The notes below the pieces were generated by a model. The model did no database searches and was not told where the DNA came from. It was given only the letters and a program-made list of their open reading frames with translations. From Chrysoporthe austroafricana (Eukaryota; Ascomycota; Sordariomycetes; Diaporthales; Cryphonectriaceae), in the NCBI GenBank assembly GCA_001051155.2, contig JYIP02000006.1, forward strand, positions 62,001 through 126,000: DNA of 64,000 nucleotides. The letters run 5' to 3'. Positions 36,906 through 64,000 of the stretch are shown one piece after another; positions within the stretch are counted from its first letter, which is position 1, and every line of letters starts with the position of its first letter. The position numbers and the translations under genes are program-made.

Positions 36906-36918
36906 TTGCTGCTGGAGT

Positions 36919-40054: not shown

Positions 40055-41679
40055 CTAGTAGTCCTCGCCACGGCTGATAACCTCCTTGACGGTCGGGCGT
40101 AGTAGGATTGTCTGTCTTGTCGCATCAGAATCCATCTTCCCGAGATCAGCCATGGAAATGACTTACGTGCTCAAACTGAGCGGTGTATGTGCCCTTCTTC
40201 TCTACCATTGGGGGATAGTCTTCGACAATCCCGGATTTGACAAGATGGTTGAGCTACATGTGGGTCAGTGAGTGATATGAGCAACAGTGGTACAGCGAGG
40301 CGGGGAGTCATACGCCAAGCAAATATTTGTCCTGTCCAATGCGGTCCAGATAGCGCCGACAAAAGGGAATGGTGCCAAAATTCTGTTTGATGACCCTGAG
40401 CAAGGACTTTGCTGAGGAGAGGCGCAGGTCGGCGTGTGGAGCATCGCGACGAAGGGCGTAATGCGACGTCTCGTCCTGCTCGACCCATCGACCGGTACCA
40501 GTGCTGCCAAATGTCTCGATTGCGAACACGTCGCCCTCTTCCATCTTGGTAGGATCGTCGGTCCTGACGAGAGGAACGCTCTTGGTGCCGTGGATAGAGT
40601 ATGGCAGAATAGTATGGCCACCTAGATTGCGGACTGATTTGATGGGATAAGTGGTCCCCCTGATCTCACATTCGTAACTTTCCATAGTCTCTTGGATATA
40701 ACCACCCAGCTCGCCGAGGCGGACATCAATTCCTGCCTCCCGAACACCGGTATTCGTGGCATCCTTGACGGCTGCAAGGAGGTTGTCATACGTGGGATCG
40801 AATGCCATGGTGAAGGCGCTATCAACGATGCGGCCACCGACATGCACGCTATCCGTAGAAAAAGATGAGCAGATGTGTCTCCAAAAAATATCTATGAACA
40901 ACATACCCAATGTCGACCTTGAGAACGCTGTCTTGGTTCAGGACAACTTTGCAGCCTGCGTTTGGACTATAATGGGCAACAACATTGTCAATGTTCAAGC
41001 CAGTGGGGAAGCCCATACCGGCCAACAAGGCATCACCTTGAGACAAGCCGTCATGGCCGACGAGGCGTCGCGCAGCATCCTCGATGGAGTTGGCAATGTT
41101 GAGAAGGGTCTGGCCAGGCTTGATCGTCCTTTGGGCCCACTGGCGGACCTGGCGATGGGCCTCTGCGGCATGACGGTAATCGTCAAGGAAGTCGGGGTTG
41201 AGATTGTCCAGATGGCGCTTCTCCTCACTGGTGGTGCGGTAGCGGTTCTCGTCCTTATATTCGACCTCCTCGCCCTTGGGATACGTCTTGTTGGGGAACA
41301 GCTGGGAGATAAGGACTAATGGAGGATCCGTCTGCACTGTCGGGACCGCCTTCTTCTTCTTCTTCTTGTTCTTCTTGGACTTATTCTTCTTCTTGGGATT
41401 GGCAGCAGACTCCGTGTTATTTGCAACATGCTCACCAGGAGCACCATCAACATCCTCTTCTGACTCGGAATCTTGGCCTGGCATCTCTGGATCATCGCCG
41501 TTGGCTATTGGTGTAGCAGCCCCGTTCGCCGCGGCGGCGGAGGGCCGCTTGGCGCTACCAGCAGAGGCTTCTTCTACTGCAGACGGCCCTCAGTCAGCTG
41601 TGTAAATGCAGTTAATGCAGTTTGCCATTGGAAGAGGTCTCCTTGATGAGTGTCTGAACATACCGCTGAAAGCAGCCAT
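40055..41679 (-). CDS. MAP2: Methionine aminopeptidase type 2 (cluster copy, probable fumagillin-type self-resistance)
   Basis: Removes the initiator Met from nascent proteins; type 2 enzymes are the covalent target of fumagillin and ovalicin. Five exons: 41664-41679, 40907-41576, 40314-40848, 40167-40253, 40055-40111. All introns are GT-AG with matching phases; 454 residues. The N-terminus is acidic then poly-lysine ([15 protein letters not shown]), as in eukaryotic MetAP2. All catalytic residues are visible: the inhibitor-alkylated His in [10 protein letters not shown], metal ligands in KVDIG and IVDSAFT, His in LGGHTI, Glu in FAIETFGS, Glu in QFEH. The residue two before that ligand Glu is Ala, as in drug-sensitive human MetAP2. 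Divergent from the MetAP1 gene. Location in the cluster suggests extra target dosage or altered binding as resistance. Confidence 0.93.
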
Positions 41680-42029
41680 TTTGCTTGAGACCCAAGCGCA
41701 ATGTGCTCACTGTGGACGGATGAAAACAAAAAGCTCGCGCTGGTTTAGAACAAAACAAGACGAGGCGAGACGGGCCCAACCTTGCCTGTCAAAGACGCCA
41801 AGCTGGAGACTAAAAGCAGGAAAGAGCGGGGTGGCAAGGGTTTATGCCCCATATGGTCGTAAACGTTTCACTGCAGGGTCTAGGTCACCTGAGTGGGAGT
41901 CCCCAGCCATTTATTGGACAAAGCATGGAACCGTACAAATCTACAGTGGATGTCGTCTGTCTTTCAAAGTCTCCGCAATTATCACACCTCACACACAATC
42001 CTTTACGCACACACGCCCACACACCTATA
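41680..42029. promoter_or_regulatory. Shared divergent promoter of MetAP2 and MetAP1
   Basis: 350 bp between the two start codons. A CA-rich stretch (ACACACGCCCACACACC) lies just upstream of the MetAP1 ATG. No TATA box is convincing. The arrangement would allow the two aminopeptidases to be co-regulated. Confidence 0.55.
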
Positions 42030-43424
42030 ATGACCGACGACGCACCAAGCCGCCGCAAGTGTCTTGGAGGAGACTGTGAAAATGATGCTGGCGATTTACA
42101 ATGCCCGACTTGCCTGAAGATGGGCAAAGACAGTTATTTCTGCTCCCAAGACTGCTTCAAAAGGAACTGGGTCGGTTGAAATTCCACTGAGATGTTCTAA
42201 CCTCGATGCAAAGTCACTTACTGACTGACTGCGAGCCTCACAGAGCCAACACAAGGCGCTCCACAAGGCTGCCCAAGGCAAGACGATCCAACATGCTGTG
42301 CGCAACTATTTGACCACAGGCCTCATTTCTAACCCGCACCCAGACGCTCGCCAGTACAACCCATTTCCAACATTTCCCTACACCGGCTCCGTGCGACCTG
42401 TTTATCCTCTTTCCCCCATGCGCACTCTTCCCCCTTCTATCAAGCGCCCTGATTGGGCCGAGACGGGCGTCCCTGAGGCCGAAAAGCGTCTCAACAGGTC
42501 TAAGATTGAGCTCCTCGACGCCGATGCACAACAGGCAATGCGCAAAGTCTGTCGACTGGCCAGGGAAGTTCTTGATATCACTGCTGCAGAACTCAAGCCA
42601 GGCATCACTACAGATTACCTCGACGAGGTCTGCCATAGAGCTTGTGTAGAACGACAAGTAAGCACGAACCAGATTCCCCCTTCTGATATGACCAAGGCAT
42701 TTGGCGCGCTAAGCGAATTTTTATTAGGCCTACCCGTCTCCCCTGAACTACAACCGCTTTCCGAAATCCCTGTGTACTTCTCCAAATGAAGTCATCTGTC
42801 ATGGGATCCCTGATCAACGGATCCTTCTCGACGGCGATATCCTCAACCTCGATATCTCTTTATACTACGGCGGCTATCACGCTGATCTGAACGAGACTTA
42901 TTACATTGGCGACCGAGCCACGGCCAATCCAGACGCGGTTCGGGTCGTCGAGACCACGCGAGAATGCTTGGACAAGGCTATCGAGATTGTCAAGCCCGGA
43001 ACCCCGATACGGGAGCTCGGCAAAGTTATCGAAAAGCATGCAAAGTCGAGAAACTGCAGTGTCGTTCCTATCTGGGGCGGCCATGGCATCAACACCGAGT
43101 TCCATCCACCGCCATGGATCCCCCACTACGCCAAGAACAAGGCCGTCGGAGTTTGCAAACCTGGCATGACTTTCACTATCGAGCCCATCCTCGCGCTTGG
43201 AAAGCCTCGCGAGGTCTATTGGCCGGACAAATGGACCAATGTGACTGTTGATGGCAAGTGGACCGCTCAATTCGGTGTGTACATAAGTCCCCATCCTGCG
43301 GGGCTCATCCGTCGCTGATGATCCTCTAGAACACACCTTGCTTGTCACAGAGACTGGAGTTGAAGTGTTGACTGCAGGCAGCAAAAACTCGCCAGGAGGT
43401 CCCATACCAATGCCGGTAGCTTGA
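42030..43424 (+). CDS. MAP1: Methionine aminopeptidase type 1 (cluster copy)
   Basis: Cytosolic, ribosome-associated type 1 enzyme. Exons 42030-42170, 42244-42657, 42728-43274, 43330-43424; 398 residues, normal for the family. The first donor is the weak GTCGGT. N-terminal MYND-like zinc finger (CLGGDCENDAGDLQCPTC...YFCSQDC) as in eukaryotic MetAP1. Catalytic core intact: ICHGIPD (His), NLDIS and ADLNE (Asp ligands), GGHG and FH (His), TIEP and FEH (Glu). The loop after GHG reads INTEFHPPPWIPHY, differing from the usual IHKLFHTAPNVPHY. Thr two before the ligand Glu is the normal type 1 residue. Unusual to find beside MetAP2; both together fit a fumagillin-type resistance cassette. Confidence 0.93.
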
Positions 43425-43743
43425 GGACGAAACCGCAAAAGCCAACTGACTGCACGATTAGTAGAGGTACAACGTGTCCCTCTGCCAATCTAGACTTACC
43501 GGCTATTTGTAGAGTGTTGAGCAAATACGGAACCGCGCTGTCTTTATGGTTTCAGACCGAGGCGGAGCGCCAGTTTTCTCATGCGATGGTGGTAACAAGT
43601 ACCGCGAGGGAGAAAGGTCGCAGAAACATCTTTTAGAGGGCCAATGCGAAGCCCAAGAATGATATCCCTTCCGTCCCTACGTCCCATGACTTCTTACCTC
43701 CTCCAATGAATGGTGCATGCTTGTTGCCGTTCTTTGCAAAGTA

Positions 43744-45600
43744 AGTCAGAGGGGGTAACTTCCGGCCGGCCCCACTTCCGGCCACCCCTGGCCGGCCACA
43801 CTACATATAGATAGATATAATATATATTTATCTTATCTCTTCTATTCAGCTACCACGATACAATCCTCTTCAATACTAGATAATTCAATATCAATCTCTC
43901 TATCAGAACTATCCGTTTCTCGATTGATTGCATTTTGAGCCTTCCGTATAGCCCTGATATCTGCAAATTTCGAATTTGGGCTTATATCAACTCTCTTCCT
44001 TTTACTAGACCTCGAGCTTTCAGCCTGTGCTTTTAAAGCTTTATTCTCTTCCAGAGCTTTAGCCAGGGCTATATCCCTTTTGTCGAATGTTTTTTGTATC
44101 TTTCTGAATAGTATACGTTATGCTGATATAGTTGAAAGTTGATATCGATTTCTTTGCAGCTGATAGTATAGATCTTTAGCATTTCGAGGGGTCGAATATA
44201 TATCCGGCTGGACTAAGGATAATTTAGGAGTAATATTGATTGCGATCGGTCGGTCTGAGTTTGATATCGATAGCTGTTTCTTCTGTTATTGATTGTTCTC
44301 GAGAAGAAAAGGGCTTAAAAGGGGCTTGGCTAGCCGGAGGGGCCGAAGACCTGTTGCTTTCTACCCAGACCTGATATTCTGGCTAGATAGGCCTTCTATC
44401 CGTGCCTGATAGTAGTTTTGAAGGAATAATCGTTTTCCGAAAGCTATTGAATCCCCCTATTGGCTCAAAAGGCTGACATTTTTCCTATAGGCTCTCTTAA
44501 GGGAAGAAAAGATCCCGAGATTAAGAGGCTGGAGAATGTAAGAGCTATAAGGAAGTAGATAGATCAATAAGATATTATTCTGAAAGCATTCTTATATAAA
44601 CTTGTCGGTTGTATAGCTGCCGTGGCTATCCAGGATTAATAGCCTGGCTTCTGAGGGGTCCTTTGGCTGGCTGCCAGGAATAAAGATTTTCTGGAGCTAT
44701 TCGAGGGCTGTTTCGTTACTAGTCCAGCCGTTTTTCGTAGCATAGAATTGCTAGCCTTTAAAAGGTTCCAGAATAATAAGGAACTATTATTGCTATATAG
44801 TTTTGCCTTTAAAGATAACGAGAGGAAAGAGGTAGGTACCCGTAGCTGAAATATATTCGAGGAACGAAATCCAGGACTTCGACCCAGGCTCTTTTCTCTG
44901 GATTGTACGTAAGAAAGAAGCCCCGAGAACTAATCCGTTCTTTCCTTAGCCCTCTATTATCCCAGTTTCGTCTATATTCTATCGGTTGGCTGGCTTGATA
45001 GCTTCGATATAAGGAAGATCGAATAAACGGAATTAAGGCTTGATTATTTCTGTTATTGCTCTATTGATTCGTTCTGAAACTATCCTTCGAGACTTTTGAA
45101 CCTTAATGCCGGGGTTTCTCTTTAAAAAAGACCTTATCCATTTCCTTCCAAGGGGCTGAGGGTCTCCCTTGACTTGCAATATCCTCTCGGCGAAAAGCTT
45201 CAGTTCTGAATGCGTCGGTAGCAAGCCTAAGTTGGCTTAACAGATAATCCATTTCGCTAGTTCAGCTTCCTGGCTAGTAAAGAGCTTTTGCTTATCTTGA
45301 TAGGCTGTTTTATGCGATTCTCTTCCTGCAAGGCGATCTTGAAGAGTGGCCCTTGGGATGCCCCATTCTTTCGAGGCTTGCCGTTGAGATAAGCCGTTTT
45401 TGATAGACTCAATGGCCTGGGCTAGCTCAGATTCAGTATATGGCTTCATAATAGTCGTATTAAGGTTCTGTAAAAAGATGAAGGTGTCCGGAATAAAATT
45501 GATTCAGAAAGGTCTATAGAAAGGGAGGTGGTTAAGGGAGCGGTATGGCCGGCCAGGGGTGGCCGGAAGTGGGGCCGGCCGGAAGTTACCCCCTCTGACT
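43744..45600 (-). mobile_element. pogo/Fot1-type DNA transposon with 55-bp perfect TIRs
   Basis: 1,857 bp. Perfect 55-bp terminal inverted repeats at 43744-43798 and 45546-45600, beginning AGTCAGAGGGGGTAAC and containing repeated GGCCGG words. Target duplication TA on both sides (43742-43743, 45601-45602), as for Tc1/mariner-pogo elements. It carries one decayed transposase on minus. It inserted into the 3' end of the acyl-CoA synthetase remnant, whose reading resumes at 45601. Confidence 0.9.
43900..45449 (-). pseudogene. Transposase (HTH_psq, CENP-B HTH, DDE_1), inactivated
   Basis: ATG at 45449. The N-terminal psq-type helix-turn-helix (SQRQASKEWGIPRATLQDRL) is followed by an in-frame TAA (CAA-to-TAA type). 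The same frame continues with the CENP-B-type HTH (GRKWIRSFLKRNPGIKVQKS, 45033-45224). The DDE domain follows with NIDETGIIEG, LILDSHGSYTTDKF and LQPLNLGIF, where the third catalytic Asp (usually PLDVGIF) reads Asn. Many further stops at former Gln/Trp codons are consistent with RIP. It would have cut and pasted its own element; now dead. Confidence 0.85.
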
Positions 45601-46805
45601 TACTGCTTGATCTTGACGCGAGCAGCATTCACTACAGCTACATTCTCCACTGTGCTAGGCACCACAACTTCCTTTAAGAAATCTACGAACGCCGTTTTCG
45701 ACTATTTCGTAAAGTACGTAAGGTATGGCTTTCCTAGATCTTGTCTTTGGGATAAGGTCTCTACTTTGGACAATGCCTTCTAAGGATACAAATGCGCCGA
45801 CTTGCCTGCGCACTAGCGACTAAATCTCAGACATAATATTGTTAGTTAGCATAGCTGAGTCGTCCTCAAATAAGGTTATAAATGCAAACGGAAGTTGGCC
45901 TTTAAGCTTGTCGGAAATACCCACCACGCAGCAGTCGACAATTAGTAGATAGGACAAAATGGCTTTCTCGATAAATCCTGTAAGCACAAATGTACATTAG
46001 CGAATTCAAAAAGCACATAGGCAATCTTTTGTCTCTCCGAATGCAACCCTATACTTCGGAACGCCTTTTTTCAATCCCGAGCGCTGCAAATTTTACATAT
46101 TGCTGGATAGCCAATAGTCGTTAATGTTCAAACGTCATTGTTCCTACTGGTTACATACATGCGGCCTTTTTTGTCTATCCATTCTGCGTCGCCTGTGTCC
46201 AAAAACTTGCTTTTGGATTTTTTTAAATAGCTTTTGTGAAACCCCTTGTTGTTGTTCCACAAGGTGCAAAATGCAGTTGGCGCAAAAGGCAGAGTTAAGA
46301 TAATGTTGCTTTTGGTTTCACATAGTACTTTATTGCCCTGTACGTCCACAACTCGGAGGTTAAAGCCCGGCATTAGCCTTCCGACGCTTTTCGCTTTGAT
46401 TCGAAGTAGCTCGTGGCTCTGCACGCAAGCTTTGCCTCGGTGCGGCTGCATTACGGCGTGCGGCGCAAGCGCGTGGCTTTTAATCGGTAATCCTGCCTTT
46501 GTCGACCACCAATTGTTGATAACATGCGAGGAGAAAGGGGCGCCATATTTATTTAGAAGATCCCAGTAGTGAGATATTAAACTACTTTCGGAGCGCTCGC
46601 TGGCTAGAAATAGAGATTTCAGCGACTGCAATCCTTTGCGCTCTCCGACACGGGAGAGGCAGTAGTTGTGCGGATCCTCTTGCCGGATGGCGCGGAGAGC
46701 CGTCAGCGCCGTGAACATGGTATTGACTTGGTACTCCTCCATCACCCCCCAGAAGGCAGACGCATCCGGTGCCCCTACCGGCTTCCCCTTATAGAGTCGG
46801 TTGCA
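45601..46805 (-). pseudogene. Acyl-CoA synthetase (ACSS-like), truncated and broken
   Basis: Remnant of an AMP-forming acetyl/propionyl-CoA synthetase-like enzyme. From 46805 down: LYKGKPVG (frameshift before it), VNTMFTALTALRAIRQEDP, LKSLFLASERSESSLI, INNWWSTKAGLPI, then FLDTGDAEWIDKKGRMYV (46128-46745). After stops come a VVGISDKLKGQLPFAF stretch (about 45900) and IPKTRSRKAI, where the family has PKTRSGK (catalytic Lys retained). The C-terminus with VENVAVVNAARVK (about 45610-45650) abuts the transposon. The N-terminal half is missing. I recall that the A. fumigatus fumagillin region contains an acetate-CoA ligase gene near its P450 and terpene cyclase, so this may be the decayed counterpart; unverified. 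Confidence 0.75.
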
Positions 46806-50156: not shown

Positions 50157-51860
50157 CTATGCCTGGGTATGTGCGAGAACTCTTTCCGCCTCCTGACCCA
50201 GAAGATGTGCGTCACCAAGATCCTGTTCCTGCTCCGACTCAATGCGACGAATAAGATCAGCATGACGCGGGCTGCGCGGCTCGATCTTGTACGCGAAGGG
50301 CACGGGGCGGTTGACCATGCCCGCAACGGCCTCTAGCTTGACTGGAATCTCGTTGCCGTGCGTGTCCGTAGCCTTGCGGACGTTGAAAGCCGCGAGTAGC
50401 ATCGCGATCGTAATGTAGACACTCCCATCGGCAAAGTATCGGCCAGAGCACGATCGCCGTCCGTAACCGAACGCGATTTCGCTCGGGTCGGGCTCGTTGC
50501 GTGGCGCCAGGTATCTTTTGGGCTTGAACACCATCGGGTCCGAGTAGTCCTTCGGGTCGTGCAGAAACCACCAGAGGGAGGGAAGCAAGAATGACCCCGC
50601 AGGGATGAGGTAGTCCTTGTAAATGATGTCCTCCTCCGACTTGTGTGTCAAGCCCATTGGTCCGACGGGATTCCACCGCCAAGCTTCCTTGACGATCCCG
50701 TCCACGTAAGGCAGATTCTTCCTGTCGTCGAAGTTGGGAAGTCGATCGGAGCCGACGACGCGGTCGATCTCTTCTTGCGCCTCTGTCACCACTTCGGGAT
50801 AAAGCAGCAGACCGAGAATCACACTCTCCATTATGGCAACCGTGCTGTCCGAGCCTGCCGCGTAGAGACTGACAGCACTCCATTTGATGGCTTCTTCGTC
50901 GTCTGGTGCCAAACGAATGCCAATGTCGCTCTTGATCCTCCTCTGCTCGACCAAGTTTGAAACGTAGGATGGACGATTGGCGGCCCGTGACATTTGCCGC
51001 TTCACAAAGTTGTACGGCAACTCTGCTGCGGCCTCATTGATGGCTTTCCACTGCTGAGCCGTCTTTCGATAGCCCAGGCCCGGGAACCACGAGGGCAGGA
51101 GATCTATGGCTGGGATGGAATCGATCACCCAAGACAGCGGCACAAACGCCAGAGACAGATTGTCCATGGCGTGCTCAATCAGCGTGACGAGCGGGTCTGC
51201 CTTGATCCTCTCGATCGAATAGCCATACGTGATTTTTAAGATGATGGCCGCTGCTAGACTATGGCCCAAGATTGATATTAGCCTGCGACCTTGCAACTCA
51301 AGTCGACACCACGGAAGAGCTGTGACATACGTTTTCAAATACACCATCATGCTGTTTGGGTTGTGAAATGTCTGGATAATGAATCGCAAGGCTTCCTTCT
51401 CCTGCGTGGCCTGGAAGCCAGCGGCAAGTCCTTTGGTGCCAATTTCCTGGTGGACCATCTTTCGATGTTTCCGGTACTTGTCTGTGTACTGGTGTGTGAT
51501 GAGGAAGTTCTCAAAGCCACAGAGCCTGGCGAAATTCAGCTGCGGCCTCGCCGAGGTCTTCTGTGCCTTCTTGCCCATCACCGTGTTGGCAGCCTCCTTG
51601 TCGTGGAAAATAACGAGCGTCTGGCCCATCACTGTGACAGAGCTGATGGAACCATAAGTGTCCTTGTGATTGAACCAATGCTGATATTCAGGTGTCCCGT
51701 GTGGTGGAAGATCGCGAATATTGCCCACGATGGGCAAAGGCTTGGGCCCCGGAGGCAGACTGTGGTCTGTTGTTCGCCACAGACATTTTCGAATCACTAA
51801 TAGGCCCAAGGCTATCACAAACGCTATGGTACCGACTTCAAAGGACAATGTGTTCGCCAT
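50157..51860 (-). CDS. Cytochrome P450
   Basis: 543 residues in two exons: 51331-51860 and 50157-51258. The intron 51259-51330 (GTATGT...CATAG) is 72 bp and has no stop, so an uninterrupted ORF misleadingly reads through it. Start at 51860 gives an N-terminal anchor (TIAFVIALGLLVI) and LPPGPKPLPIVGNI. I-helix AAGSDST (proton-relay Asp/Ser-Thr present), EAWRWNP (ExxR), and haem loop FGYGRRSCSG with Cys. CYP64-like general family. Divergent from the UbiA-type cyclase gene across 483 bp. In fumagillin biosynthesis a multifunctional P450 acts directly on the cyclase product, and this neighbour is the natural candidate. Confidence 0.93.
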   Translation of the reverse strand: MANTLSFEVGTIAFVIALGLLVIRKCLWRTTDHSLPPGPKPLPIVGNIRDLPPHGTPEYQHWFNHKDTYGSISSVTVMGQTLVIFHDKEAANTVMGKKAQKTSARPQLNFARLCGFENFLITHQYTDKYRKHRKMVHQEIGTKGLAAGFQATQEKEALRFIIQTFHNPNSMMVYLKTYVTALPWCRLELQGRRLISILGHSLAAAIILKITYGYSIERIKADPLVTLIEHAMDNLSLAFVPLSWVIDSIPAIDLLPSWFPGLGYRKTAQQWKAINEAAAELPYNFVKRQMSRAANRPSYVSNLVEQRRIKSDIGIRLAPDDEEAIKWSAVSLYAAGSDSTVAIMESVILGLLLYPEVVTEAQEEIDRVVGSDRLPNFDDRKNLPYVDGIVKEAWRWNPVGPMGLTHKSEEDIIYKDYLIPAGSFLLPSLWWFLHDPKDYSDPMVFKPKRYLAPRNEPDPSEIAFGYGRRSCSGRYFADGSVYITIAMLLAAFNVRKATDTHGNEIPVKLEAVAGMVNRPVPFAYKIEPRSPRHADLIRRIESEQEQDLGDAHLLGQEAERVLAHTQA

Positions 51861-52343: not shown

Positions 52344-53588
52344 ATGAAAATATACGTAAGATCAGCGACTCGAATTACCGAGTGTATAAGGGTTCTGTAC
52401 CTATTCGGTAAATCTGATATCCCTGTGGCTGTTCTACCCACGGTGCGTTTTTCGGCTCAGAAAATATCCTAACCATTTGTCTGCGAGCTTGCTACTGACG
52501 AATGCAAAGATGGCAATCGCCATCGTCCTAGCTGGTCCATCGAGTCCCTATCTCATCTTGAAAAGCTTTCTATGGACTCAATTGCATTTACTTACCTTTC
52601 AGGTATGTTTACGACACTCTGGAGACTGACTTGTGCTTGGCTCACAATGGCGCAGATAAAAAATCAAGTCAGTCTATTATCCCACCACCTGCTTCTCGAC
52701 CGTCCTTTTACTTACGTAGAGAGCTAGATAAACGGCATAGAAGAGGACAGGATCTCGAAACCCCATCGACCTCTGACCTCGGGTATGATATCCAGTTACA
52801 ATGCTAACTTGCTCTATTATGGCCTATTCATATCCATGTGGGCGGCAGCCTATTTCATGGAGACCGTCTCATGCACACTGATCTACTCTGTGGCCATCGT
52901 GATCTATAACGAGGGAGGTCTGGCTGCAATACCCATCGTCAAAAATGTCATTGGCGCGATAGGGCTTGGTTGCTATTGCTGGGGAAGCACCATTATCCTC
53001 GGTATGGTCCTCGAGCATCTTCTTGACTTGAAAAAGAATCTCGGACTGCGCTGACAGTATCACAGATCAGGGAAGGCAATTAAGTGGCACGAAAGCAATC
53101 GCCTTGATCGTAATACCTGCCATATTCAGTACTACCGTAAGTAGATTATTCTGCGCCGAGTGGAATCTTGGAATTGGTACCGACGACCAACCTTGAATTG
53201 TAGGGTCACGCTCAAGATTTCCGTGATCGCTCAGGCGATCTCCTGATGGGCCGCAAGACGATCCCACTGCTCCTCTCACAACCAGTAGCCCGTTGGTCCC
53301 TCGCCATCATGATCGCAGGATGGACAATAGCCTTGGTTGCACTGTGGCAACCCCCGGTCTTGGCTAGCATTGCATTTACTGCACTGGGCTTGCAGTGCCT
53401 GAGTGGCTATCTCCGGAGCTACGACGAGAAAGACGACTACGTGTCGTATTGCTGGTACGGGGTTAGTTACAACCACCCAAGCTCAGTTTTATGACCACTA
53501 TGAAGCTCACAATTTGCTGAGACAGGTCTGGCTTCTTGTAGGCAACCTACTGCCTATTTTTCCTAGATTGAGGGGCGAGATGTACTAG
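52344..53588 (+). CDS. UbiA-superfamily membrane terpene cyclase/prenyltransferase (Fma-TC-like)
   Basis: Integral membrane enzyme of about 289 residues in seven exons: 52344-52442, 52510-52602, 52656-52667 (a 12-nt microexon), 52728-53001, 53066-53136, 53204-53461, 53526-53588. Introns are GT-AG; exon phases are consistent. First Mg/diphosphate motif NQINGIEEDRISKPHRP; second QDFRDRSGD followed by GRKTIPLLL, both UbiA hallmarks. Hydrophobic helices between them (LLYYGLFISMWAAAYF, IALIVIPAIFSTT). C-terminus VWLLVGNLLPIFPRLRGE. Related small fungal UbiA proteins include Fma-TC, which cyclises farnesyl diphosphate to beta-trans-bergamotene in fumagillin biosynthesis. MetAP genes nearby favour that role, but a prenyltransferase acting on an aromatic acceptor cannot be excluded from sequence alone. 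Confidence 0.85.
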
Positions 53589-54127: not shown

Positions 54128-56887
54128 TCAGACTGCCGTAGACAATAAGAGAGCGGTGTGTCTCTCGGGCTCTGGAAAATCGTAAGCAGCCAGATCGACG
54201 CCGGAAAAGCCAGCATTTTTGAGATGTTCGTCCCATTGCTCAGCAGACTGCAGGGGGCTCTCCGTCCTTCCTTCATCAACACCCAGCCACCAACCTGAGA
54301 GACATCCAAAAGCCATATTGATGTATGGAGTCAATCTGGTGAGTTCGACAAGCCCAAGTACCCCGCCGGGCTTCATCAATTTGCGAATAGTGCCCAGGGA
54401 TTTGGCCAAGGATCGCGTTGCGTGAATGACGTTGGCCGCGATGATCAAGTCGTAAGCGTGCTCTTCGAAGCCCTGCTTCGCCGCGTCAATCTCCACATTC
54501 AGGGTCTTGAAGGTGAGGAGATGTTTCCATTTCTTCAAGGTGGATTCACCGGTCTTGAAGAACCCGTGAGAGATGTCAGTGTACATGTATTCTCTGCAGA
54601 ACCTCTCCCCATGAGGACTGCACGCCTGAAGGACTTGAAGGGTCGTGCTACCGGTTCCGGCGCCGACTTCGAGGATCCTAATGTTCTTTTTCTGGGAGAC
54701 CAGCCGCTTTGCGTATTCCGCCACATAGCGGTTGGTCCGGGCGCCTTCGTCGGACAGATACATGCGAAACAGGAGGTCGCCCTTCAGGATGTGGAAGAGC
54801 GGGTCGGTCTTTCCGGTCAGCAGTCGGACCAGCTCAGGCCCAATCCTGTCAATTGCTTCGCCCTCGACGCCCATCTTCGACGTCAGCCGATCCAGCTCTT
54901 CCCTGGTATTCGGACATCGCTGAATGAGCGCTGACCCGGAATCCGACTTGACGAACTGCTGCAGCACTTTCCACCAGTGGACTTGGTAATCCTGTTTGAC
55001 CGCAAGACGCTGCTCATGCATCTCATTGACAGCCCAGTCGATGTACCGAGCACAGATGGCAGAGCCCAGATTGAATTTCTCTTCCGGGGATATTCCAGCT
55101 TGATCAGACTGCAAGGGCACAGTGACCGACTCTAGTTCGTCAGCTGTGATGATCACGCCGCCCACCTTGGTGTTGTGGTCTGCTCCGCCGTTCGTCAAAT
55201 GAGAGGTGAAGTTCATGTGCGCCCAATTCGTGTTGACTTCGTCATCCAGCCAGGTTCTCCACGACGGGACGCCGCCGAAATAGAACATGACCATGGGAGG
55301 CCTTCCCGGTATGTTGGCTCCCACAAACCAGGAGCGAGTCTCCTTGGCTGACTTTCCGAACCGATACGAGTCCCAGATGCCGTCAACGTGATCCGTCCAG
55401 GCCTTTTGTGCTTCCTCCTTGACGTCGATACTGGCGAGACCTTTTTTCTCCATGTGACGGATCGTTTTGCCGACCCAGTTTCCGACGATGTCCAGAGGGA
55501 CCGGGAGATTCCCGATGGGCACATGAGGGCCCAAGATCATGAACATGTTGGGGAAGCCAGACACCAGAGCCCCCGCGAAAGTCGCAAGCTTTTCGTCCCA
55601 ACACGCCTTAAGAGACTTGCCCTGCGTCCCTTGGATGTCCACGTCGATCAAGGCTCCAATGCCGGTATCGAATCCCAATGCGAACACAACCACATCAAAC
55701 TCGCATTCGGTCCCAGCCGTCCGGATCCCTTTCTCGTAAAACACGATGTCATCCTGACTGACATCGATCAGGTTGACATTCGGCTGATTGAAAGCTTCAT
55801 AGTAGAAGTTGCCGCAGGGCGACCGCTTGGCGCCGAAGGGGTATTTGGGACACAGAAGCTCGGCCGTTTCTGGATTCCGAACAATAGCGCGAATCTTCTG
55901 ACGTATGTACTCCGCTGTCATCTCGTTGGCACTCGGGTCCGTGAAAATGTCATCAAACGTCTCGTATTGAAAGGGAAAATTCCCACGTTCCCAGCCCTGA
56001 TCGAAAACTTGCCGAATGTCACTGGCGGCCGCCGCACCCTTGATTGTCTTCCCGTTTGTTGTGTTGAGCGCGTGACCGCCTGGGTGAGATACTGCACGCT
56101 GCCAGGTAGCAGCATGGTGCTTCTTGATGCCGAGAGCTTCACACTCATCCATGGCATGATTGCGGCCCGGGAGTACGTAGCTAGGTGTGCGTTGGTAGAC
56201 AGTGAGTTCTTTGGCAACGTGGGCCAGCTCAGGAATAAGCTGGACTCCGGTAGACCCCGTTCCGATGACGGCGATGCGCTTGTCCTGAAGGTCGACCTTG
56301 TGCGTAGGCCAGCTGGACGCCTGATACCACTCGCCCTGGTACGACTCGAAGCCATGAAAATCTGGAACCTTCGGTTTGGAAATGAGCCCGACGGCCGGTA
56401 AAAAGTAACGACAAGTCGTGGAAGAGCCGTCTGCGGTGGTGACTGTCCATATTTTCTCGGCCTCGCTGTAGTGAGCGGCCAAAACCCGTGTTTCAAACTC
56501 AATATGCTTGCGAAGCTGGTAGCGATCTGCCTTTCATGTCAGTGAACGAGGTTCATTGGCCTAGATTGATTTGGGTGAGAACTGAGGAACAGGAGACTAA
56601 CCAGCAATACGACTCAGATATCGTTGAAGCTCTTGTTGGGAAGGACAACGGTCACGGAAGTCCCAATCCTCCAGCAGCTCCGAAGCGAAGCTCAAGAGGT
56701 ACACTGATGCATCGCAGTCACAACGCGATCCAGGGTAGCGGTTCCACCACCAGGTGCCTCCCACGTCCGATGCAGCGTCGAAACACTTGATGGTGAGGCC
56801 CAGCTGATCCAACTCCCACATCGTTCTGATGCCGCTGAAGCCTGCACCGACGACGATGGCATCGTAAGCCACAGCTTGACTCTTCAT
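54128..56887 (-). CDS. Flavin monooxygenase-methyltransferase fusion (PsoF-like)
   Basis: 894 residues, exons 56602-56887 and 54128-56526 (intron 56527-56601, GTTAGT...GGCAG). The N-terminal about 540 residues are a Baeyer-Villiger-type flavoprotein: GAGFSG (FAD), [17 protein letters not shown] (NADPH). The fingerprint FxGxxxHxxxWP appears as [12 protein letters not shown], with Gln for the usual His. The C-terminal about 300 residues are a PKS-type C-methyltransferase: [14 protein letters not shown] (SAM motif I), [29 protein letters not shown]. The pseurotin enzyme PsoF has this same order and does both methylation and oxidation. Here it may methylate the polyketide in trans and oxidise or epoxidise the product. 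An upstream frame to 56929 adds 14 codons. Divergent from 57510. Confidence 0.9.
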
Positions 56888-57509: not shown

Positions 57510-58055
57510 ATGCCGAGCATGTCGTCCCTGATCAACACCGACAAGTGCCCCCAGCTGGGTGCGGCCCTCCTGCGAGTCTCCCCGCTGGTCGTCTCGTCGG
57601 CATCTCTCATGTTCAGCTGGGCCCAAGACATCTCGCTCGGCGCGTTCCTCCACCCCAGCCTGCGTGACGACCCAGCTCACCCGAGCGGCAAGATCCTGCC
57701 GCGCTACCTGCCTGCGTTCATGGGACCGGGCATTTGGGGCATCGGCCTGACCTACCCATCGGCTACCATCCTGTGCATCGCCAACGGACTCAGCGGCCAG
57801 AGTCCTGGCGTTCGTCATTTGTATCTCGCCGGGGCGGCGTTCAGCATCGCGCATTTCTGCTGGGGACCCAAGATGTTTGCCATTCTGGCTCGCATTCAAG
57901 ATGCAAAGACGGCTGGGGTTCCCAACGAGAAAGCCCTCCAAGATTGGCTGCCCAATCACCACACGCGCACCCTGTTGGTAAACGCCCCAGCGTTTCTCTG
58001 CATCTTCGGTGCCACCTTGGCTACTGTCATGGAGGGATTGGCCATAGAGGCTTAG
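57510..58055 (+). CDS. Small integral membrane protein, DUF1772/anthrone-oxygenase-like
   Basis: 181 residues, single exon, ATG at 57510. About four hydrophobic segments: SPLVVSSASLMFSWAQDISL (about 24-43), PAFMGPGIWGIGLTYPSAT (about 69-87), LYLAGAAFSIAHFCW (about 104-118) and LLVNAPAFLCIFGATLATV (about 154-172). The layout and the final WLPNHHTRTLLVNAPA stretch resemble DUF1772 proteins, some of which (HypC-like) assist anthrone oxidation, but similarity is weak and no reaction can be assigned. Divergent from the FMO-MT fusion; convergent with the hydrolase gene, 144 bp apart. Confidence 0.75.
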   Translation: MPSMSSLINTDKCPQLGAALLRVSPLVVSSASLMFSWAQDISLGAFLHPSLRDDPAHPSGKILPRYLPAFMGPGIWGIGLTYPSATILCIANGLSGQSPGVRHLYLAGAAFSIAHFCWGPKMFAILARIQDAKTAGVPNEKALQDWLPNHHTRTLLVNAPAFLCIFGATLATVMEGLAIEA

Positions 58056-58199
58056 GCAGGGAAAGCTATTGGATCACACAAGCCTTACACCGCAAAGGCA
58101 TGCAATTCTTAGACAGACTGTTACTCCATCGACGGTATGGTTGTCATGTAGTATATACTTCAGTACCTAGGCTAGTTCTTGTTGAGCACACCCAATTAT

Positions 58200-59507
58200 T
58201 TATTCTGCCACCAACGGCTCCCTCACAACGCCAAATCGGTCATCCAACCACTGAAAGGTTTTCTGCGCGGAGTAGCCGAAGGCACCGACCTTAGCTTGCA
58301 ATCCTCCGAAGGCTATGTCATGGGAAATCCACTTCTCCTTGTCGACTCCGTCCTTGAGACTCGTGAGGCTAGCATAAATCTTGTCCGTAGTAGTCGCCGG
58401 GTCAAACAGCCAGCTAGCCCCTGCTCCAGTGACTAGCGTTGGACACTTTACGCCGGCTAGATACTCTGTCCCGTCGGGATTAAGCAGCGTGTACGAGGTG
58501 AAACTTCGCATGATGTCGGCCTCGGTCGACGTGCCAGTGGCCCACTTGAGATGATTGAATTCCCAGCGTGCCTGAAAATCGAGTTTCTGCAAGGTCCTCA
58601 GGATAAAATTAAACGCACTGTCGGACAGCCAACCGTTCATAAAGCCGTTGAAGAGGGGGCCCGGCATCCTCCCGCCGACAAAGCTCGCCAGACTGTAGAA
58701 TCCATCCACGCTGACGCACGCCTTGATCCGTTCGTCTGCGGCGGCCCGCAAGGCGAAGTACCCTCCCATCGAAGCGCCAGTGACGGCGATGTGGTCAAGA
58801 TCAAGTTCGAGATCTGCATGCTGGGCGGCGAAGTAGAAGAGGTGATCCAGGACCGCGCTGGTGACGACCTCCCAGTCCGGGCGCATCGGCAGCTTATCGC
58901 GGCGAAGAACGATGCCCTGACCCGGTCCCTCGAATGTGACAACTGCGTAGCCCACCTCTGGTCCGAAAGCTGGGTTGACGAAGTACACTTCTTCCTGCGT
59001 GGAATCACCACCGCCAGAGTTGAGGAGGATGGGGATTTTTCGGCCGGGGATGCGTCTGGAACATTCTGGCAGATACAGGTAGCCCGGCAGCTTGATTCCA
59101 TTCTCGTACGGGATCTCCAGGAAGAATGTCGCACCGGCTCGGTATTGGACTCCCTTGCGGAAGTTCGCAATGGCATGCTCGATCGTGGGGAGAACGCGCT
59201 CATCCTTTCCAATGGGGCCTTCATTCAACATGAACTGGGCCGCACGAAGGTAATTAGACGATCTCAAGTAAGCCCGCCGCGCACCTACTCTGTCACCTGC
59301 TTCCTCGGCCTCCCTCGCTATTCCCTCAGCCTTCTTCCCGACGTCACAGAAGGCAGAAAACCATGACTCCGGATCCAAATCCTTGATTTTAGCTACCGCT
59401 TCCAGTGCCTCTCCTATCTCCGCCCCTTCATGTGGTGCCATTGCCAAGAGGCGCAGGTACTCAAAATTGAAAAAGGCGGACTTGAAGAAAGTGTGCATCA
59501 AAGCCAT
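58200..59507 (-). CDS. Alpha/beta hydrolase, Ayg1/polyketide-transferase (AF380-like) group
   Basis: 435 residues, uninterrupted. Start at 59507 (MALMHTFF); the frame continues upstream to 59591 but family length supports 59507. The N-terminal helical cap domain is followed by the hydrolase fold: strand PGRKIPILLNSGGGDSTQEE (oxyanion region), FEGPGQG, nucleophile elbow TGASMGGYFALR (Ser), and LFDPATTTDK (probable acid Asp). Where relatives carry the catalytic His (usually a GA..HCQ.GA-type segment), this protein reads FGGLQAKVGA, so the His appears to be Gln. Relatives release or transfer polyketides. In fumagillin biosynthesis AF380 transfers the PKS product to the terpene alcohol, which would fit its place divergent from the PKS gene. 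Confidence 0.9.
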   Translation of the reverse strand: MALMHTFFKSAFFNFEYLRLLAMAPHEGAEIGEALEAVAKIKDLDPESWFSAFCDVGKKAEGIAREAEEAGDRVGARRAYLRSSNYLRAAQFMLNEGPIGKDERVLPTIEHAIANFRKGVQYRAGATFFLEIPYENGIKLPGYLYLPECSRRIPGRKIPILLNSGGGDSTQEEVYFVNPAFGPEVGYAVVTFEGPGQGIVLRRDKLPMRPDWEVVTSAVLDHLFYFAAQHADLELDLDHIAVTGASMGGYFALRAAADERIKACVSVDGFYSLASFVGGRMPGPLFNGFMNGWLSDSAFNFILRTLQKLDFQARWEFNHLKWATGTSTEADIMRSFTSYTLLNPDGTEYLAGVKCPTLVTGAGASWLFDPATTTDKIYASLTSLKDGVDKEKWISHDIAFGGLQAKVGAFGYSAQKTFQWLDDRFGVVREPLVAE

Positions 59508-60082
59508 GTTCGACTCGCGGGGTTTGATCGGGTGAGAGCACGGTCGTGAATAAAGCATAAGAAAGAGCAGTCGAACGGCTCGAAATTCCACTTAATCTCA
59601 AATCAACTTTGGTCCAAAAGTGCTTCAAGTCGGGAGTTTCAGGAAACCGAAATGCGAAGCATCACCACAGTTGTGCAATTCGCTGTAAAGTAGCTATCAG
59701 GTGCGATGCACAGTGCCCATTGAACCTGAAGGCTGGTGTACAAGGCTCGGTCGCTCCTCATGTGACGCTCACAACTCGGCCGAGGCCTACTTGAGCATCC
59801 TTTCGGAAGCCATTCGGGCGGCAACTACCTGCTGAGGCATATCGGAGCTGTTTTCGGTTCATACTGGTAATTGTTCGGTCGGGTTTTCAATTGGCACGCA
59901 TAGTATCTTAACTAGCCTACTCACTCTTGGCTAGCCTGTGTCAATAACTCTTACGATGTGTCCTCTGGGGAGATTCTGAACAGCTAGGGCGACACTCTAT
60001 GTTAAGTTCTGCGAGGCACTCTCTCTCCTTACTCACCTGCTGATTATTCATCCTGTTATTCTGCATTGTGTCGCTGAAAAAT
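59508..60082. promoter_or_regulatory. Divergent promoter, hydrolase / PKS
   Basis: 575 bp between start codons. Contains the palindrome CTCGGCCGAG (59775-59784) and further CGG words (ATCGGAGC, TTTCGGTTC, TTCGGTCGGG; about 59840-59882) suited to a Zn2Cys6 factor. Confidence 0.5.
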
Positions 60083-63000
60083 ATGACGTACAGGCACCCA
60101 CCAAAGGAACCTATTGCGATCATTGGCGCTGGCTGCCGGCAAGTTTCGTATAGAGCCCGGCGTGAAGGACAGCCTTGCTGATTGTTTCCCATACAGATTC
60201 CCGGGAAATGCGACCTCTCCATCAAAGCTGTGGGACTTGCTCCACGCGCCTCGAGATCTGAGAAAAGCGATCCCTTCCGAGTCACGCTTCCATGCGGAGG
60301 GTTTCTACCACCCCAACGGCGAGTACCATGGCTGCAGCAACGTCACCAAATCGTACTTCATCGAGGAGGACCCGAGGCTTTTCGACTGCGGATTCTTCAG
60401 CATCGCCCCTCGGGAGGCCGAATCCATCGATCCGCAGCAACGTGTGCTGCTTGAGACGGTGTATGAGGCCATGGAAAACGCGGGCCTGACTTTGCAGGGC
60501 CTCAAAGGAAGCCAAACGTCAGCTTATGTTGGCGCCATGTCGGCTGATTACACGGATACCCAGACGCGGGACCTTGAGGACATGTCTCAATACATGATCA
60601 CGGGTACTTCGCGCGCCCTCCTTGCCAACCGTTTGTCGTACTTTTTCGACTGGCACGGGCCATCCATCTCGGTCGACACGGCATGCTCCTCGAGCTTGGC
60701 AGCGGTGCATCTCGGTGTCCAAAGTCTCCGGAACGGCGAGTGTACCATGTCGTGCGTGGCAGGTTCCAACTTAATCATGGGACCTGATGCCTATGTTGCG
60801 GCCACAAGCCTCCACTTGCTCTCGCCCTCGGGCAGGTCGCAGATGTGGGACCAGGCAGCCGATGGGTATGCCCGTGGCGAGGGTGTCTGTGCCTTCTTTC
60901 TGAAGACGCTCTCCCAGGCCCTCAAGGATGGGGACCGGATCGATGCCCTCATCAGAGAAACTTGCGTCAACTCGGACGGCCGTACGGTGGGCATCGCCTT
61001 GCCCAGTGCCGAGGCGCAGGCTGCATGTATTAGCACGACTTACAAGAATGCCGGCCTCGACCTGCTGAGGACGGAAGATCGACCGCAGTATGTTGAAGCA
61101 CACGGTGAGTTACTTGCCACTAGGCCGCCATGTCATAATCGAGTGCGGGAGCTGACGAAATGTAGGCACTGGCACACAAGCTGGAGACCCAAGAGAGGCG
61201 TCCGCGTTGAGCCAAGTGTTTTTCCCACCTGGCCACGATCACGACGACCGGCCCAATCTGATTGTGGGATCAATCAAAACCATTATCGGCCACACAGAAG
61301 GAAGTATGTGCATAGAGACCTTGATTTTGATGGATATAACCCTGGAAAGCATATGCTGATGTAAAATGCTTTAGCTGCTGGTGTCGCCGCCATGTTGAAG
61401 ACACTTCTCTCCATGCAAAATAACACGATTCCGCCGAATCAACATCTTCACAACCTTAATCGTAGCGTTAGACCTTTCTACAAAAAGCTCCGAATTCCTA
61501 CAGATCCACAGAAATGGCCCCCTGTTCCGCCTGGTCAGCCGCTTCGGGCGAGTGTGAACGGGTTTGGGAGTGGTGGGACAAACTGTAAGTGGCCTACCTT
61601 CCGAAAATTGGGATAAACTTGGCGCACTCAAAGCTGATGCGGCACAGGTCACGCCATCATGGAAAGTTATGTTCCGGAGATTCATGATCACGGGCCATGG
61701 GGCTGGAAGAATGCGCTGGCACATACAAGGCCCAAGGCCATACCCCCCGACAATGTTGGATTCACTCCAAGTCCCATAGTCTTCTCAGCTGTCTCCGAGC
61801 CAACCTTGGTTGCAATGCTGGAGAGATATTCGCATTACTTGGAGACTACCAAGAGCGATCTGTCCATGCAACGCCTGGCAGCGACTCTTCACACGCACCG
61901 CTCGACCCTGCCGGTCCGTATCGCCTTTCCCGCCAGCAGCTCAAGGCAAGACTTACTCGAGGCAATCGACACACAGCTGTCCAATGTGCGAGCAAGTCCA
62001 GGCACAGAGATCGGCACCCGTCCCCCAGCCATCGAACTTGATGAGGCCAGACGTCCTCGCATCCTCGGCATCTTCACCGGACAAGGTGCGCAGTGGCCCG
62101 GAATGGGCCAGAGCCTTATGCGCACGTGCGTCTTGTTCAGAGAGACCATACAGCTCATGGAGGCGTCGCTGGCAGCGCTGCCAGACCCTCCGGCCTGGTC
62201 GCTCACAGACGAGCTCATGGCGCCGCCCGCCACCTCCCGCATGAGCAACACCGAGCTGTCGCAGCCCCTCTGCGCGGCGGTCCAAGTAGGCCTGTGCCGG
62301 GTGCTCGCCCGAGCCGGCATCACATTTCACACGGTGGTCGGTCACTCTGGGGGAGAAATCGGCGCCGCGTACGCTGCGGGAAGGATCTCCGAGTCGGACG
62401 CGGTGAGGATCGCCTACTACCGCGGCATTGTGTGCAAGCTCGCGGTCGGTGCGGATGGCAGGCGAGGCGCCATGATCGCCGTCGGGTTCGGCTACCAAGA
62501 GGGTCTCGATTTCTGCTCGGCCGCGAAGATGCACGGTCGACTGACGGTGGCGGCGAGTAACTCGTCCAAGAGCGTGACACTCTCCGGCGACGAGGATGCC
62601 GTGCAGGAGGCGAAGCAGATCCTGGACGAGCAAGGCCTGTTTAATCGCGTGCTCAAGGTAGACACAGCCTATCACTCGCACCACATGGCACTTTGTGCGG
62701 AGCCCTACACTGCCCAGCTCAAGAAGTGTGACATTCAACCGAGACAGGGTAATGTTACTACCGCTTGGGTTTCGAGTGTATATGAAAATTGCCGCACCAT
62801 CACGTCCGAGAACGACACCGACCTGCGGGCCGAGTACTGGGCTGACAATTTGCGTGGGAGGGTGCTCTTCTCACAAGCACTCGAACGTGCCTTGGATGAC
62901 GGCAGAGGCTCTCTCGACCTCGCGCTGGAAGTTGGGCCCCACCCGGCCTTGAGAGGCCCGTCACTGGAGACAATGAGAGTGCAGTGGGGTTATGAGATCC

Positions 63001-64000
63001 CCTACTCTGGTGTGCTTGATCGGAAGGCTGACGATATCTCGGCACTTAGTGCCGCTCTCGGTCTCGTTTGGACGCACCTGGGACCCAATTGTGTCAACTT
63101 CGGTGGCTACGACTCCATATTCAGCAGAGACAGCATCGATCCGACTCCTCTGTCTGATTTACCAACCTATCCCTGGGACCACAAGCAGGTCCTGTATCGG
63201 GAATCACGGCTCAACAAGAAGATTCGGTCGAGAACGGAGAGACCCCATGAGCTTCTTGGCAAGAGGACTCCAGATGACGCCGATTATGAGCCGAGGTGGC
63301 GCAACATTTTCAAGCTAGATGAGATACCCTGGCTGCGAGACCACCGCGTCCAGGACCGAAACATTCTTCCTGCCGCTGCATATGTGGTCATGGCTTTGGA
63401 GGCCGCCCAGACCATCAGCAGGGGCAAGAATGTGGAGAGCATAGAGCTTACGAACATCGCCATCTTACGACCAATTGTCCTAGATGAGTCGTCTGGGGGC
63501 ACAGAGACGCTGTTGTCGCTCCGCACTAGTCTGGACGCCGGCAAGGTCGAAAAAAATGCCATCTTGGCAGACTTCAGCCTGAGTGCCAGCACAGTCGAGG
63601 ACAAGCACTTGAGGACTGTTGCCACGGGACAGATACGCATCTCTCTCGCAGACGACAAGCCCGAGGATCCAGCCTTGTTTCCTGCCAGATCAGCCGAATC
63701 GCCGTCTGAGCTGTTACCGGTGCAGGTCGACCAATTCTACAATGAACTGCGCGACATAGGCCTGATCTACAACGGCCCGTTCAGAGCCATCACCTCGGCA
63801 GCAAGGCGGTTGGACATGGCTTCCGCCACGGTAGCCATCGATGGGGAGGTGGCAGGGTCCATGTCAATCCATCCGACGTGGCTTGATGCCTGCTTCCAGA
63901 CATTCTTTGCTGCATTTTCCGCTAATGGAGATGCATCTCTGTGGACTGCCTTCATGCCGACGACTATTGGTCGCATGACCTTCTTGCCAGCATCACCAAA
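60083..64000 (+). CDS. Highly reducing type I polyketide synthase (KS-AT-DH..., cut by window edge)
   Basis: Exons 60083-60138, 60197-61104, 61166-61303, 61375-61584, 61648 to beyond 64000. The first intron has a GC donor (GCAAGT...ACAG); the rest are GT-AG. About 1,220 codons are visible. KS: GAGCRFPGN, active-site Cys in VDTACSSS, His in EAHGTGT and [19 protein letters not shown], nucleophile [24 protein letters not shown], where the usual HxxxGxxxxP has Asp for Gly, and LDACFQ with the second catalytic Asp. Downstream domains (expected CMeT, ER, KR, ACP) lie outside. An HR-PKS builds a reduced or polyene chain; fumagillin's PKS makes the decatetraenedioate side chain. No NRPS module is visible. 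Confidence 0.92.

What the first reader, a model, noticed from the sequence alone, without database searches (positions are those of the whole stretch)
40055..64000. Fumagillin/ovalicin-type meroterpenoid cluster with a new gene composition
Seen: UbiA-type membrane cyclase with a divergent P450, an HR-PKS with a divergent polyketide-transferase-like hydrolase, an FMO-methyltransferase fusion, and both MetAP types in 24 kb. Known: in A. fumigatus, fumagillin uses a UbiA-type bergamotene cyclase, a P450, an HR-PKS and AF380, with MetAP2 and MetAP1 genes in the region, interleaved with pseurotin genes including PsoF. Inference: this is a related pathway making a MetAP2-inhibitor-like terpene-polyketide. 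The order differs, and I see no ketoreductase, ABM monooxygenase or phytanoyl-type dioxygenase here, so the product may be undescribed.
Basis: partly seen in the sequence, partly recalled or inferred. Interest (0 to 1): 0.9.

Follow-up and report, generated by a model that had tools for sequence, protein, structure and literature searches.

The report
Pseurotin–ovalicin type fungal gene supercluster
This stretch of a fungal chromosome holds a known kind of double gene cluster, one half for a pseurotin-like compound and one half for a terpene that would block the enzyme MetAP2, together with spare copies of the target enzymes; the gene read as the terpene's polyketide partner really belongs to the pseurotin half.

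Summary
The listed genes are real and their frames are open. The PKS is misread. It is not a stand-alone HR-PKS but a 4014-aa PKS-NRPS hybrid that runs 8.6 kb past the window (60083-72569), with a degenerate methyltransferase region. Beside it lie an FMO-methyltransferase whose MT domain is 62% identical to A. fumigatus PsoF, and an alpha/beta hydrolase at the place expected for PsoB. That trio is a pseurotin-type core, not a fumagillin polyketide arm.

Both MetAPs are second copies; the others lie on other contigs.

Best reading: an intertwined pseurotin/ovalicin-type supercluster, like those published from Metarhizium robertsii and Pseudallescheria boydii, and partly decayed. The acetate-CoA ligase is a remnant beside a transposase, only a C-terminal part of the O-methyltransferase was found, and a genome-wide ABM search found nothing.

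Beyond about 37 kb of repeats to the left lies an island with a dioxygenase, a GrgF-type hydrolase and an ER-less, MT-less HR-PKS. It could be a displaced fumagillin arm, but all four such hydrolases found sit beside a PKS, so this stays open.

The parts
33176..34698 (+). Zn2Cys6 transcription-factor gene; orthology to FapR/UpmR not testable
   Evidence: Zn_clus at 33176-33283, E 8.2e-5; predicted frame 33550-34698, itself without Pfam match
34785..35295 (-). EthD-domain protein; an EthD gene (Afu8g00430) lies next to psoF in A. fumigatus (PMC7020470)
   Evidence: EthD E 1.2e-14
36170..36767 (-). O-methyltransferase, only a C-terminal part found (FmaD-type candidate, apparently 5'-truncated)
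   Evidence: Methyltransf_2 matched only at profile 130-209; no match in three minus frames of 36700-40100, a scan that also missed the intact methyltransferase at 37963-38858; frames
37963..38858 (-). SAM methyltransferase, 273 aa (PsoC-type candidate)
   Evidence: Methyltransf_23 E 5e-10 on the spliced model
40055..41679 (-). MetAP2, second copy, 454 aa, 5 exons
   Evidence: 241/326 identical to the C1 copy over the catalytic part
42030..43424 (+). MetAP1, second copy, 398 aa, 4 exons
   Evidence: C21 copy 51-75% identical piece by piece
44367..45437 (-). pogo/Tc5-type transposase match
   Evidence: HTH_psq, HTH_Tnp_Tc5, DDE_1
45730..46769 (-). acetate-CoA-ligase-type remnant: only the last part of AMP-binding and the C-terminal domain
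   Evidence: AMP-binding profile 243-364 (24.3 bits, under its cut-off of 29.9) and AMP-binding_C (E 2.5e-12) in different frames; 716 bases remain before the P450, too few for the missing 242 profile positions; A. fumigatus has such a gene at Afu8g00500 (PMC7020470)
47486..49253 (-). cytochrome P450 'a', 523 aa, 4 exons; heme motif FGYGRRACVG
50157..51860 (-). cytochrome P450 'b', 543 aa, 2 exons, next to the cyclase (FmaG-position candidate)
52344..53588 (+). UbiA-type membrane terpene cyclase, 289 aa, 7 exons; NQINGIEED and QDFRDRSGD
   Evidence: PF01040 E 6.2e-25; motifs
54128..56887 (-). PsoF-type FMO-methyltransferase fusion, 894 aa
   Evidence: PDB 6kjg (PsoF MT domain) E 6.3e-147, 215/346 identical
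57519..58055 (+). 178-aa predicted protein, hydrophobic by eye, no Pfam match
58200..59558 (-). alpha/beta hydrolase, 452 aa, PsoB-position candidate
60083..64000 (+). 5' part of PsoA-type PKS-NRPS (continues to 72569 outside the window; 4014 aa in all, 8 exons)

Best explanation
The locus is an intertwined biosynthetic supercluster of the pseurotin / fumagillin-ovalicin kind. Arm 1 (pseurotin-type): the PKS-NRPS builds a polyketide joined to an amino acid. Its cis methyltransferase region looks dead, so the PsoF-type enzyme methylates the chain in trans and later epoxidises the ring, giving an azaspirene/pseurotin-type spiro-lactam; the hydrolase, a P450 and a small methyltransferase tailor it. 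Arm 2 (terpene): the UbiA-type cyclase turns farnesyl diphosphate into a sesquiterpene, most likely beta-trans-bergamotene, and the adjacent P450 oxidises it towards an epoxide of the ovalicin/fumagillol type that attacks MetAP2. The extra MetAP2 and MetAP1 genes give self-protection. Shown: genes, domains, motifs, PsoF homology, second MetAP copies, the ligase remnant. Inferred: substrates, products, self-protection, and the roles of both P450s. Because the ligase gene is broken, the O-methyltransferase seems to be, and no dioxygenase lies in this island, the terpene arm may stop early, depend on genes elsewhere, or be failing.
For: PKS-NRPS architecture; no methyltransferase family hit in it, motif I reading LQVGPSAAK, only a weak 30% match to the PsoF-type MT domain (E 3.6e-6). 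FMO-MT fusion 62% identical to PsoF in the MT domain and the only fusion found in the genome (of 45 matches 2 are this gene; the other 43 cover only the FMO or only the MT half). [quoted passage not shown] these are the motifs given for Fma-TC-group synthases in PMC9835599. Both MetAPs are extra copies. The published M. robertsii and P. boydii clusters hold the same blend of two pathways.
Against: No dioxygenase in the island, no GST_N match near it, O-methyltransferase seen only in part. PsoB, PsoC and PsoD assignments rest on position and domain only. The UbiA motifs also occur in bisabolene synthases. No expression data.
Confidence: 0.82

Rival explanations
1. Fumagillin-type meroterpenoid cluster: the PKS at 60 kb makes the polyketide ester of the terpene and the hydrolase at 58 kb transfers it.
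For: UbiA, P450, PKS, hydrolase and MetAP genes are neighbours.
Against: The PKS is a PKS-NRPS and sits with a PsoF homologue; GrgF is not among the 5 solved relatives of the hydrolase; no ABM match in the genome.
Confidence: 0.03
2. Displaced fumagillin arm: the dioxygenase, GrgF-type hydrolase and ER-less, MT-less HR-PKS at C19:41.7-50.9 kb, cut off from the rest by about 37 kb of mutated repeats, are the C6 hydroxylase, transferase and polyene PKS of the terpene pathway, so the genome still holds most of a fumagillin-type set.
For: Three genes in a row with the expected functions; hydrolase matches GrgF; no ER or MT match in the PKS, as an unmethylated polyene needs; both islands are flanked by copies of the same repeats.
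Against: All 4 hydrolases of this family found in the genome lie within 4 kb of a PKS match, so the pair is ordinary; about 63 kb to the cyclase; no comparison with FmaB/FmaC/FmaF possible; no ABM match for the last step.
Confidence: 0.2
3. Pseurotin-type cluster alone is active and the terpene arm is a leftover under decay.
For: Ligase remnant and a transposase between the MetAPs and the P450s; O-methyltransferase seen only in part; no dioxygenase in the island.
Against: UbiA, both P450s and both MetAPs keep open frames, and catalytic motifs where checked.
Confidence: 0.22
4. The UbiA gene makes a different sesquiterpene (for example a bisabolene) and its place among pseurotin genes is accidental.
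For: The same motifs occur in bisabolene synthases (PMC9835599); this genome has 7 other UbiA places matching it at 26-36% identity.
Against: Two extra MetAP copies beside it point to a MetAP inhibitor; of 8 UbiA paralogues fetched none shows both motifs in an unspliced six-frame scan.
Confidence: 0.1

Closest known systems
Pseurotin / 12-hydroxy-ovalicin blended cluster of Metarhizium robertsii (mPsoA, mFmaA, UpmR; PMC9600275)
   Same: PKS-NRPS, UbiA terpene cyclase and other pseurotin/fumagillin accessory genes in one locus without a fumagillin HR-PKS beside them; two methionine aminopeptidases are listed for the M. anisopliae counterpart (PMC5088523).
   Different: M. anisopliae lists two phytanoyl-CoA dioxygenases, a GST, an O-methyltransferase and an acetate-CoA ligase; here the island has no dioxygenase, no GST_N match, a ligase remnant and only part of an O-methyltransferase.
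Ovalicin / pseurotin cluster of Pseudallescheria boydii (Pbo_Ova, Pbo_Pse; PMC8877094)
   Same: Intertwined sesquiterpene epoxide and pseurotin genes.
Fumagillin / pseurotin supercluster of Aspergillus fumigatus (Afu8g00370-00520; PMC7020470)
   Same: UbiA cyclase next to a P450, PsoF, EthD protein, both MetAP types, acetate-CoA ligase (here a remnant); subtelomeric in A. fumigatus, near a contig end here (no telomere repeat seen).
   Different: No HR-PKS/AF380 pair in the island, no ABM match in the genome, altered order (PsoF-type gene between cyclase and hydrolase).

Membership tests
Pseurotin biosynthetic cluster | Hybrid PKS-NRPS | tested here: met
   Domains; KS match; landmarks and 4014 aa
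Pseurotin biosynthetic cluster | PsoF FMO-methyltransferase fusion acting in trans | tested here: met
   MT domain 215/346 identical to PsoF; cis MT of the PKS without Pfam match. Trans action itself not tested
Pseurotin biosynthetic cluster | PsoB alpha/beta hydrolase | tested here: inconclusive
   Fold and position only
Pseurotin biosynthetic cluster | PsoC methyltransferase and PsoD P450 | tested here: inconclusive
   Candidates 37963-38858 and one of two P450s; no reference sequence
Pseurotin biosynthetic cluster | PsoE glutathione S-transferase | tested here: not met
   GST_N: 12 places in the genome, none on C19:1-180000; other GST families not searched genome-wide
[quoted passage not shown]
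   motif definition from passages of PMC9835599
Fumagillin/ovalicin (bergamotene) pathway | Cyclase in the Fma-TC clade, product beta-trans-bergamotene | not testable with these tools
Fumagillin/ovalicin (bergamotene) pathway | Multifunctional P450 FmaG | tested here: inconclusive
   P450 with heme motif adjacent to the cyclase
Fumagillin/ovalicin (bergamotene) pathway | C6 dioxygenase FmaF | tested here: inconclusive
   None in the island; one PhyH gene at C19:41693-42496
Fumagillin/ovalicin (bergamotene) pathway | O-methyltransferase FmaD | tested here: inconclusive
   Only a C-terminal part found, 36170-36767; the scan upstream is weak, as it missed a neighbouring intact methyltransferase
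Fumagillin (ester) branch | HR-PKS FmaB with transferase FmaC in the cluster | tested here: not met
   Window PKS is a PKS-NRPS. A candidate pair lies about 63 kb from the cyclase
Fumagillin (ester) branch | ABM monooxygenase FmaE | tested here: not met
   PF03992: 0 matches in the genome (rings in 11 of 14 prokaryote controls, no fungal control)
Fumagillin/pseurotin supercluster | Second MetAP2 and MetAP1 in the cluster | tested here: met
Fumagillin/pseurotin supercluster | FapR/UpmR-type Zn2Cys6 regulator | tested here: inconclusive
   Two Zn2Cys6 genes towards the two ends of the island; orthology untested

The most novel reading that the evidence does not exclude
The genome keeps nearly a whole fumagillin-type pathway split over two islands by an array of RIP-like mutated repeats. 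The pseurotin core, cyclase, P450s and MetAPs stand in one island; a polyene HR-PKS, a GrgF/AF380-type transferase and the dioxygenase stand 37 kb away in the other. With no ABM, the product would be a new prefumagillin-like or otherwise acylated ovalicin, and the case would show a supercluster being taken apart by repeats.
Probability: 0.18. Interest if true: 0.65.

Novelty: new variant of a known kind. Interest (0 to 1): 0.42.

Why it matters
It adds a rearranged and partly eroded case to a supercluster published from several fungi, and it corrects a likely misreading: the PKS next to the cyclase belongs to the pseurotin arm. If the left island belongs to it, the locus would show how the fumagillin polyketide arm is gained or lost, a question raised by its absence in Metarhizium (PMC9600275).

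Tried and rejected
Reading the 60-kb PKS as a fumagillin HR-PKS: rejected after the right flank showed condensation, AMP-binding, carrier and reductase-type domains. Reading the 58-kb hydrolase as an AF380-type transferase: rejected, since its 5 solved relatives include pseudo-oxynicotine hydrolase and AntI but not GrgF, while the left-island hydrolase matches GrgF. Apparent frame break in the KS of the PKS: explained by a GC-AG intron and two ordinary introns. Left-island hydrolase as proof of a fumagillin arm: weakened, because 4 of 4 family members found lie beside a PKS match. A first gene finder without strand competition gave overlapping nonsense and was dropped. Solved-structure search of P450 'b': the 60 shown of 199 matches are animal and plant enzymes by name. 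No structure prediction was run. Six-frame scans of gaps covered most but not all gaps of the island, some on one strand only.
Full report
What was checked. The window is C19:62001-126000 of a 48.15-Mb, 22-contig genome without names; that it is fungal is read from its genes and introns. I fetched C19:1-62000 and C19:100001-180000 and made gene models with a small splice-aware gene finder plus hand correction. In 40055-64000 the following are intact by frame: MetAP2, MetAP1, two P450s, UbiA, an FMO-methyltransferase fusion, a 178-aa protein, an alpha/beta hydrolase and the start of a large PKS gene. Pfam supports these except the MetAPs, which were identified by PF00557 and, for MetAP2, by solved relatives, and the 178-aa protein, which has no match.

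The PKS. The gene starts at 60083 and ends at 72569, 8.6 kb past the window, with 8 exons and 4014 aa. Pfam finds AT, DH, the start of KR, condensation, AMP-binding, carrier and NAD_binding_4 domains in the two exon pieces given to it. The KS lies in the earlier exons, with the active site DTACSSSL at residue 179 and a KS C-terminal match at C19:123165-123332; the first carrier is seen by its GIDSL motif. The methyltransferase region has no Pfam match and its motif I reads LQVGPSAAK; a weak 30% match to the PsoF-type methyltransferase (E 3.6e-6) shows that the region is still there but diverged. This is a PKS-NRPS hybrid, not a stand-alone HR-PKS.

The FMO-methyltransferase. Its methyltransferase domain matches PDB 6kjg, named PsoF, with E 6.3e-147, 215 of 346 aligned residues identical. 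Its FMO half matches Baeyer-Villiger monooxygenases. It is the only fusion found in the genome: one search lists 45 matches, two of them this gene; the other 43 cover one half or the other. PMC4979870 (one passage) describes PsoF as a bifunctional epoxidase and C-methyltransferase that methylates the nascent chain in trans. A PKS-NRPS with a degenerate cis domain beside a PsoF homologue fits that scheme.

The UbiA protein. [quoted passage not shown] The window protein has NQINGIEED and QDFRDRSGD and no NDXXDXXXD. One search lists 16 PF01040 places, two of them this gene; 8 of the others were fetched. In an unspliced six-frame scan, 4 of the 8 (L002-L005) show the prenyltransferase motif in context, 3 (L006-L008) show motif II but a different motif I, and 1 (L001) is unclear. 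The window protein matches 7 divergent UbiA places at 26-36% identity and does not match the five best-scoring PF01040 genes at E 0.001. A tree with Fma-TC itself could not be built because the protein database was switched off. The same motifs occur in bisabolene synthases, so the product bergamotene is an inference.

MetAPs. The window MetAP2 has a second copy at C1:2506309-2507657, with 241 of 326 residues identical over the catalytic part. The window MetAP1 has a second copy at C21:958459-959903, 51-75% identical piece by piece. Which copy is the housekeeping one is inferred from place. The cluster MetAP2 aligns to solved MetAP2 structures and keeps the histidine of the AHYSPN stretch; that this corresponds to human His231 is my reading. 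PMC7020470 (passages) reports both MetAP types in the A. fumigatus cluster and suggests resistance to the own product. Self-protection here is inferred.

Signs of decay. Between the MetAPs and the P450s, six-frame Pfam scans with X at stops found the last part of an AMP-binding enzyme (46769-46326, 24.3 bits against a cut-off of 29.9, and AMP-binding_C at 45972-45730, E 2.5e-12, in another frame) and a pogo/Tc5-type transposase (45437-44367). Only 716 bases remain between the ligase match and the P450 upstream, too few for the missing 242 profile positions. A. fumigatus has an acetate-CoA ligase in its cluster (PMC7020470), and so does M. anisopliae (PMC5088523, Table 2 as seen). An O-methyltransferase at 36170-36767 shows only the C-terminal part of its domain. 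The scan upstream of it found nothing, but that scan also missed the spliced methyltransferase at 37963-38858, so its silence is weak evidence. No GST_N match lies on C19:1-180000 (12 places elsewhere; other GST families were not searched genome-wide). No ABM match exists in the genome; the search rings in 11 of 14 prokaryote controls and has no fungal control.

The left island. At C19:40-55 kb, outside the window, lie a PhyH dioxygenase (41693-42496, +), an alpha/beta hydrolase (42797-43725, -), a reducing PKS (44204-50852, +; KS-AT-DH-KR-ACP, no ER or MT match) and an MFS transporter (52633-54310, +). The gene finder split the PKS into two models; I read them as one gene because the frame runs on between them. 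The hydrolase matches GrgF (E 7.9e-82). PMC8902786 (passages) lists GrgF and Fma-AT together as enzymes that add polyketide chains; that they share a family is from recall. These three genes are what a fumagillin polyketide arm and C6 hydroxylase would need. But the hydrolase family has 4 members found here and all 4 lie within 4 kb of a PKS match, so the pairing is ordinary. Only this one of the 4 pairs has a PhyH neighbour among the 10 PhyH places. Between the islands C19:55001-92000 is 27% GC with TpA/ApT 1.10, against 0.68-0.71 in the islands, and shares repeats with the outer AT-rich blocks. RIP is my reading of these values.

Comparison with print. PMC9600275 (parts 1-3 of 6 read): M. 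robertsii holds a blended pseurotin and 12-hydroxy-ovalicin cluster lacking FmaB, FmaC and FmaE; its cyclase is 76% identical to FmaA and makes beta-trans-bergamotene. PMC8877094 (passages): P. boydii holds an 18-gene ovalicin cluster intertwined with pseurotin genes. PMC5088523 (passages): the M. anisopliae counterpart and others. The founding paper (Wiemann 2013) was not held. This locus works like these and most likely belongs with them, with a changed order and losses; it is not a fumagillin ester cluster as far as the window shows. The A. fumigatus places of psoA and psoB, and the roles of PsoB-PsoE, are from recall.

Verdict. The finding is a variant of a known kind, of moderate interest. 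The open question worth a follow-up is whether the left island is the missing polyketide arm.

Noticed in passing
C19:40001-55000 (about 7-22 kb left of the window start; L048, L049): Second gene island with PhyH dioxygenase, GrgF-type hydrolase, ER-less and MT-less reducing PKS and MFS transporter.
   Followed up: partly
window 1-31000 and C19:1-40000, 150001-180000: Long AT-rich blocks (about 26-27% GC) sharing repeats; the best 40 of 149 aligned pairs are 1.3-7.3 kb long and 73-87% identical, with RIP-like dinucleotide ratios.
   Followed up: partly
window 44367-45437: Pogo/Tc5-type transposase beside a truncated acetate-CoA-ligase-type gene.
   Followed up: partly
window 47486-49253 and 50157-51860: Neither P450 matches the usual [AG]Gx[DE]T[TS] I-helix pattern: 'b' reads AGSDST, close to it, while 'a' reads DGGTRSP; both heme motifs are normal.
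   Followed up: no
window 60139-60196: First intron of the PKS-NRPS uses a GC-AG splice pair (GCAAGT).
   Followed up: no
genome-wide (C2, C19, C20, C22): All four GrgF-type hydrolase genes found lie within 4 kb of a PKS match.
   Followed up: partly
beyond the window, extended coordinates 79125-86138 (L013): MFS transporter, a Zn2Cys6 transcription factor and a second EthD protein near the right end of the island.
   Followed up: no
window 57519-58055: 178-aa predicted protein, hydrophobic by eye and without Pfam match, between the PsoF-type gene and the hydrolase.
   Followed up: no
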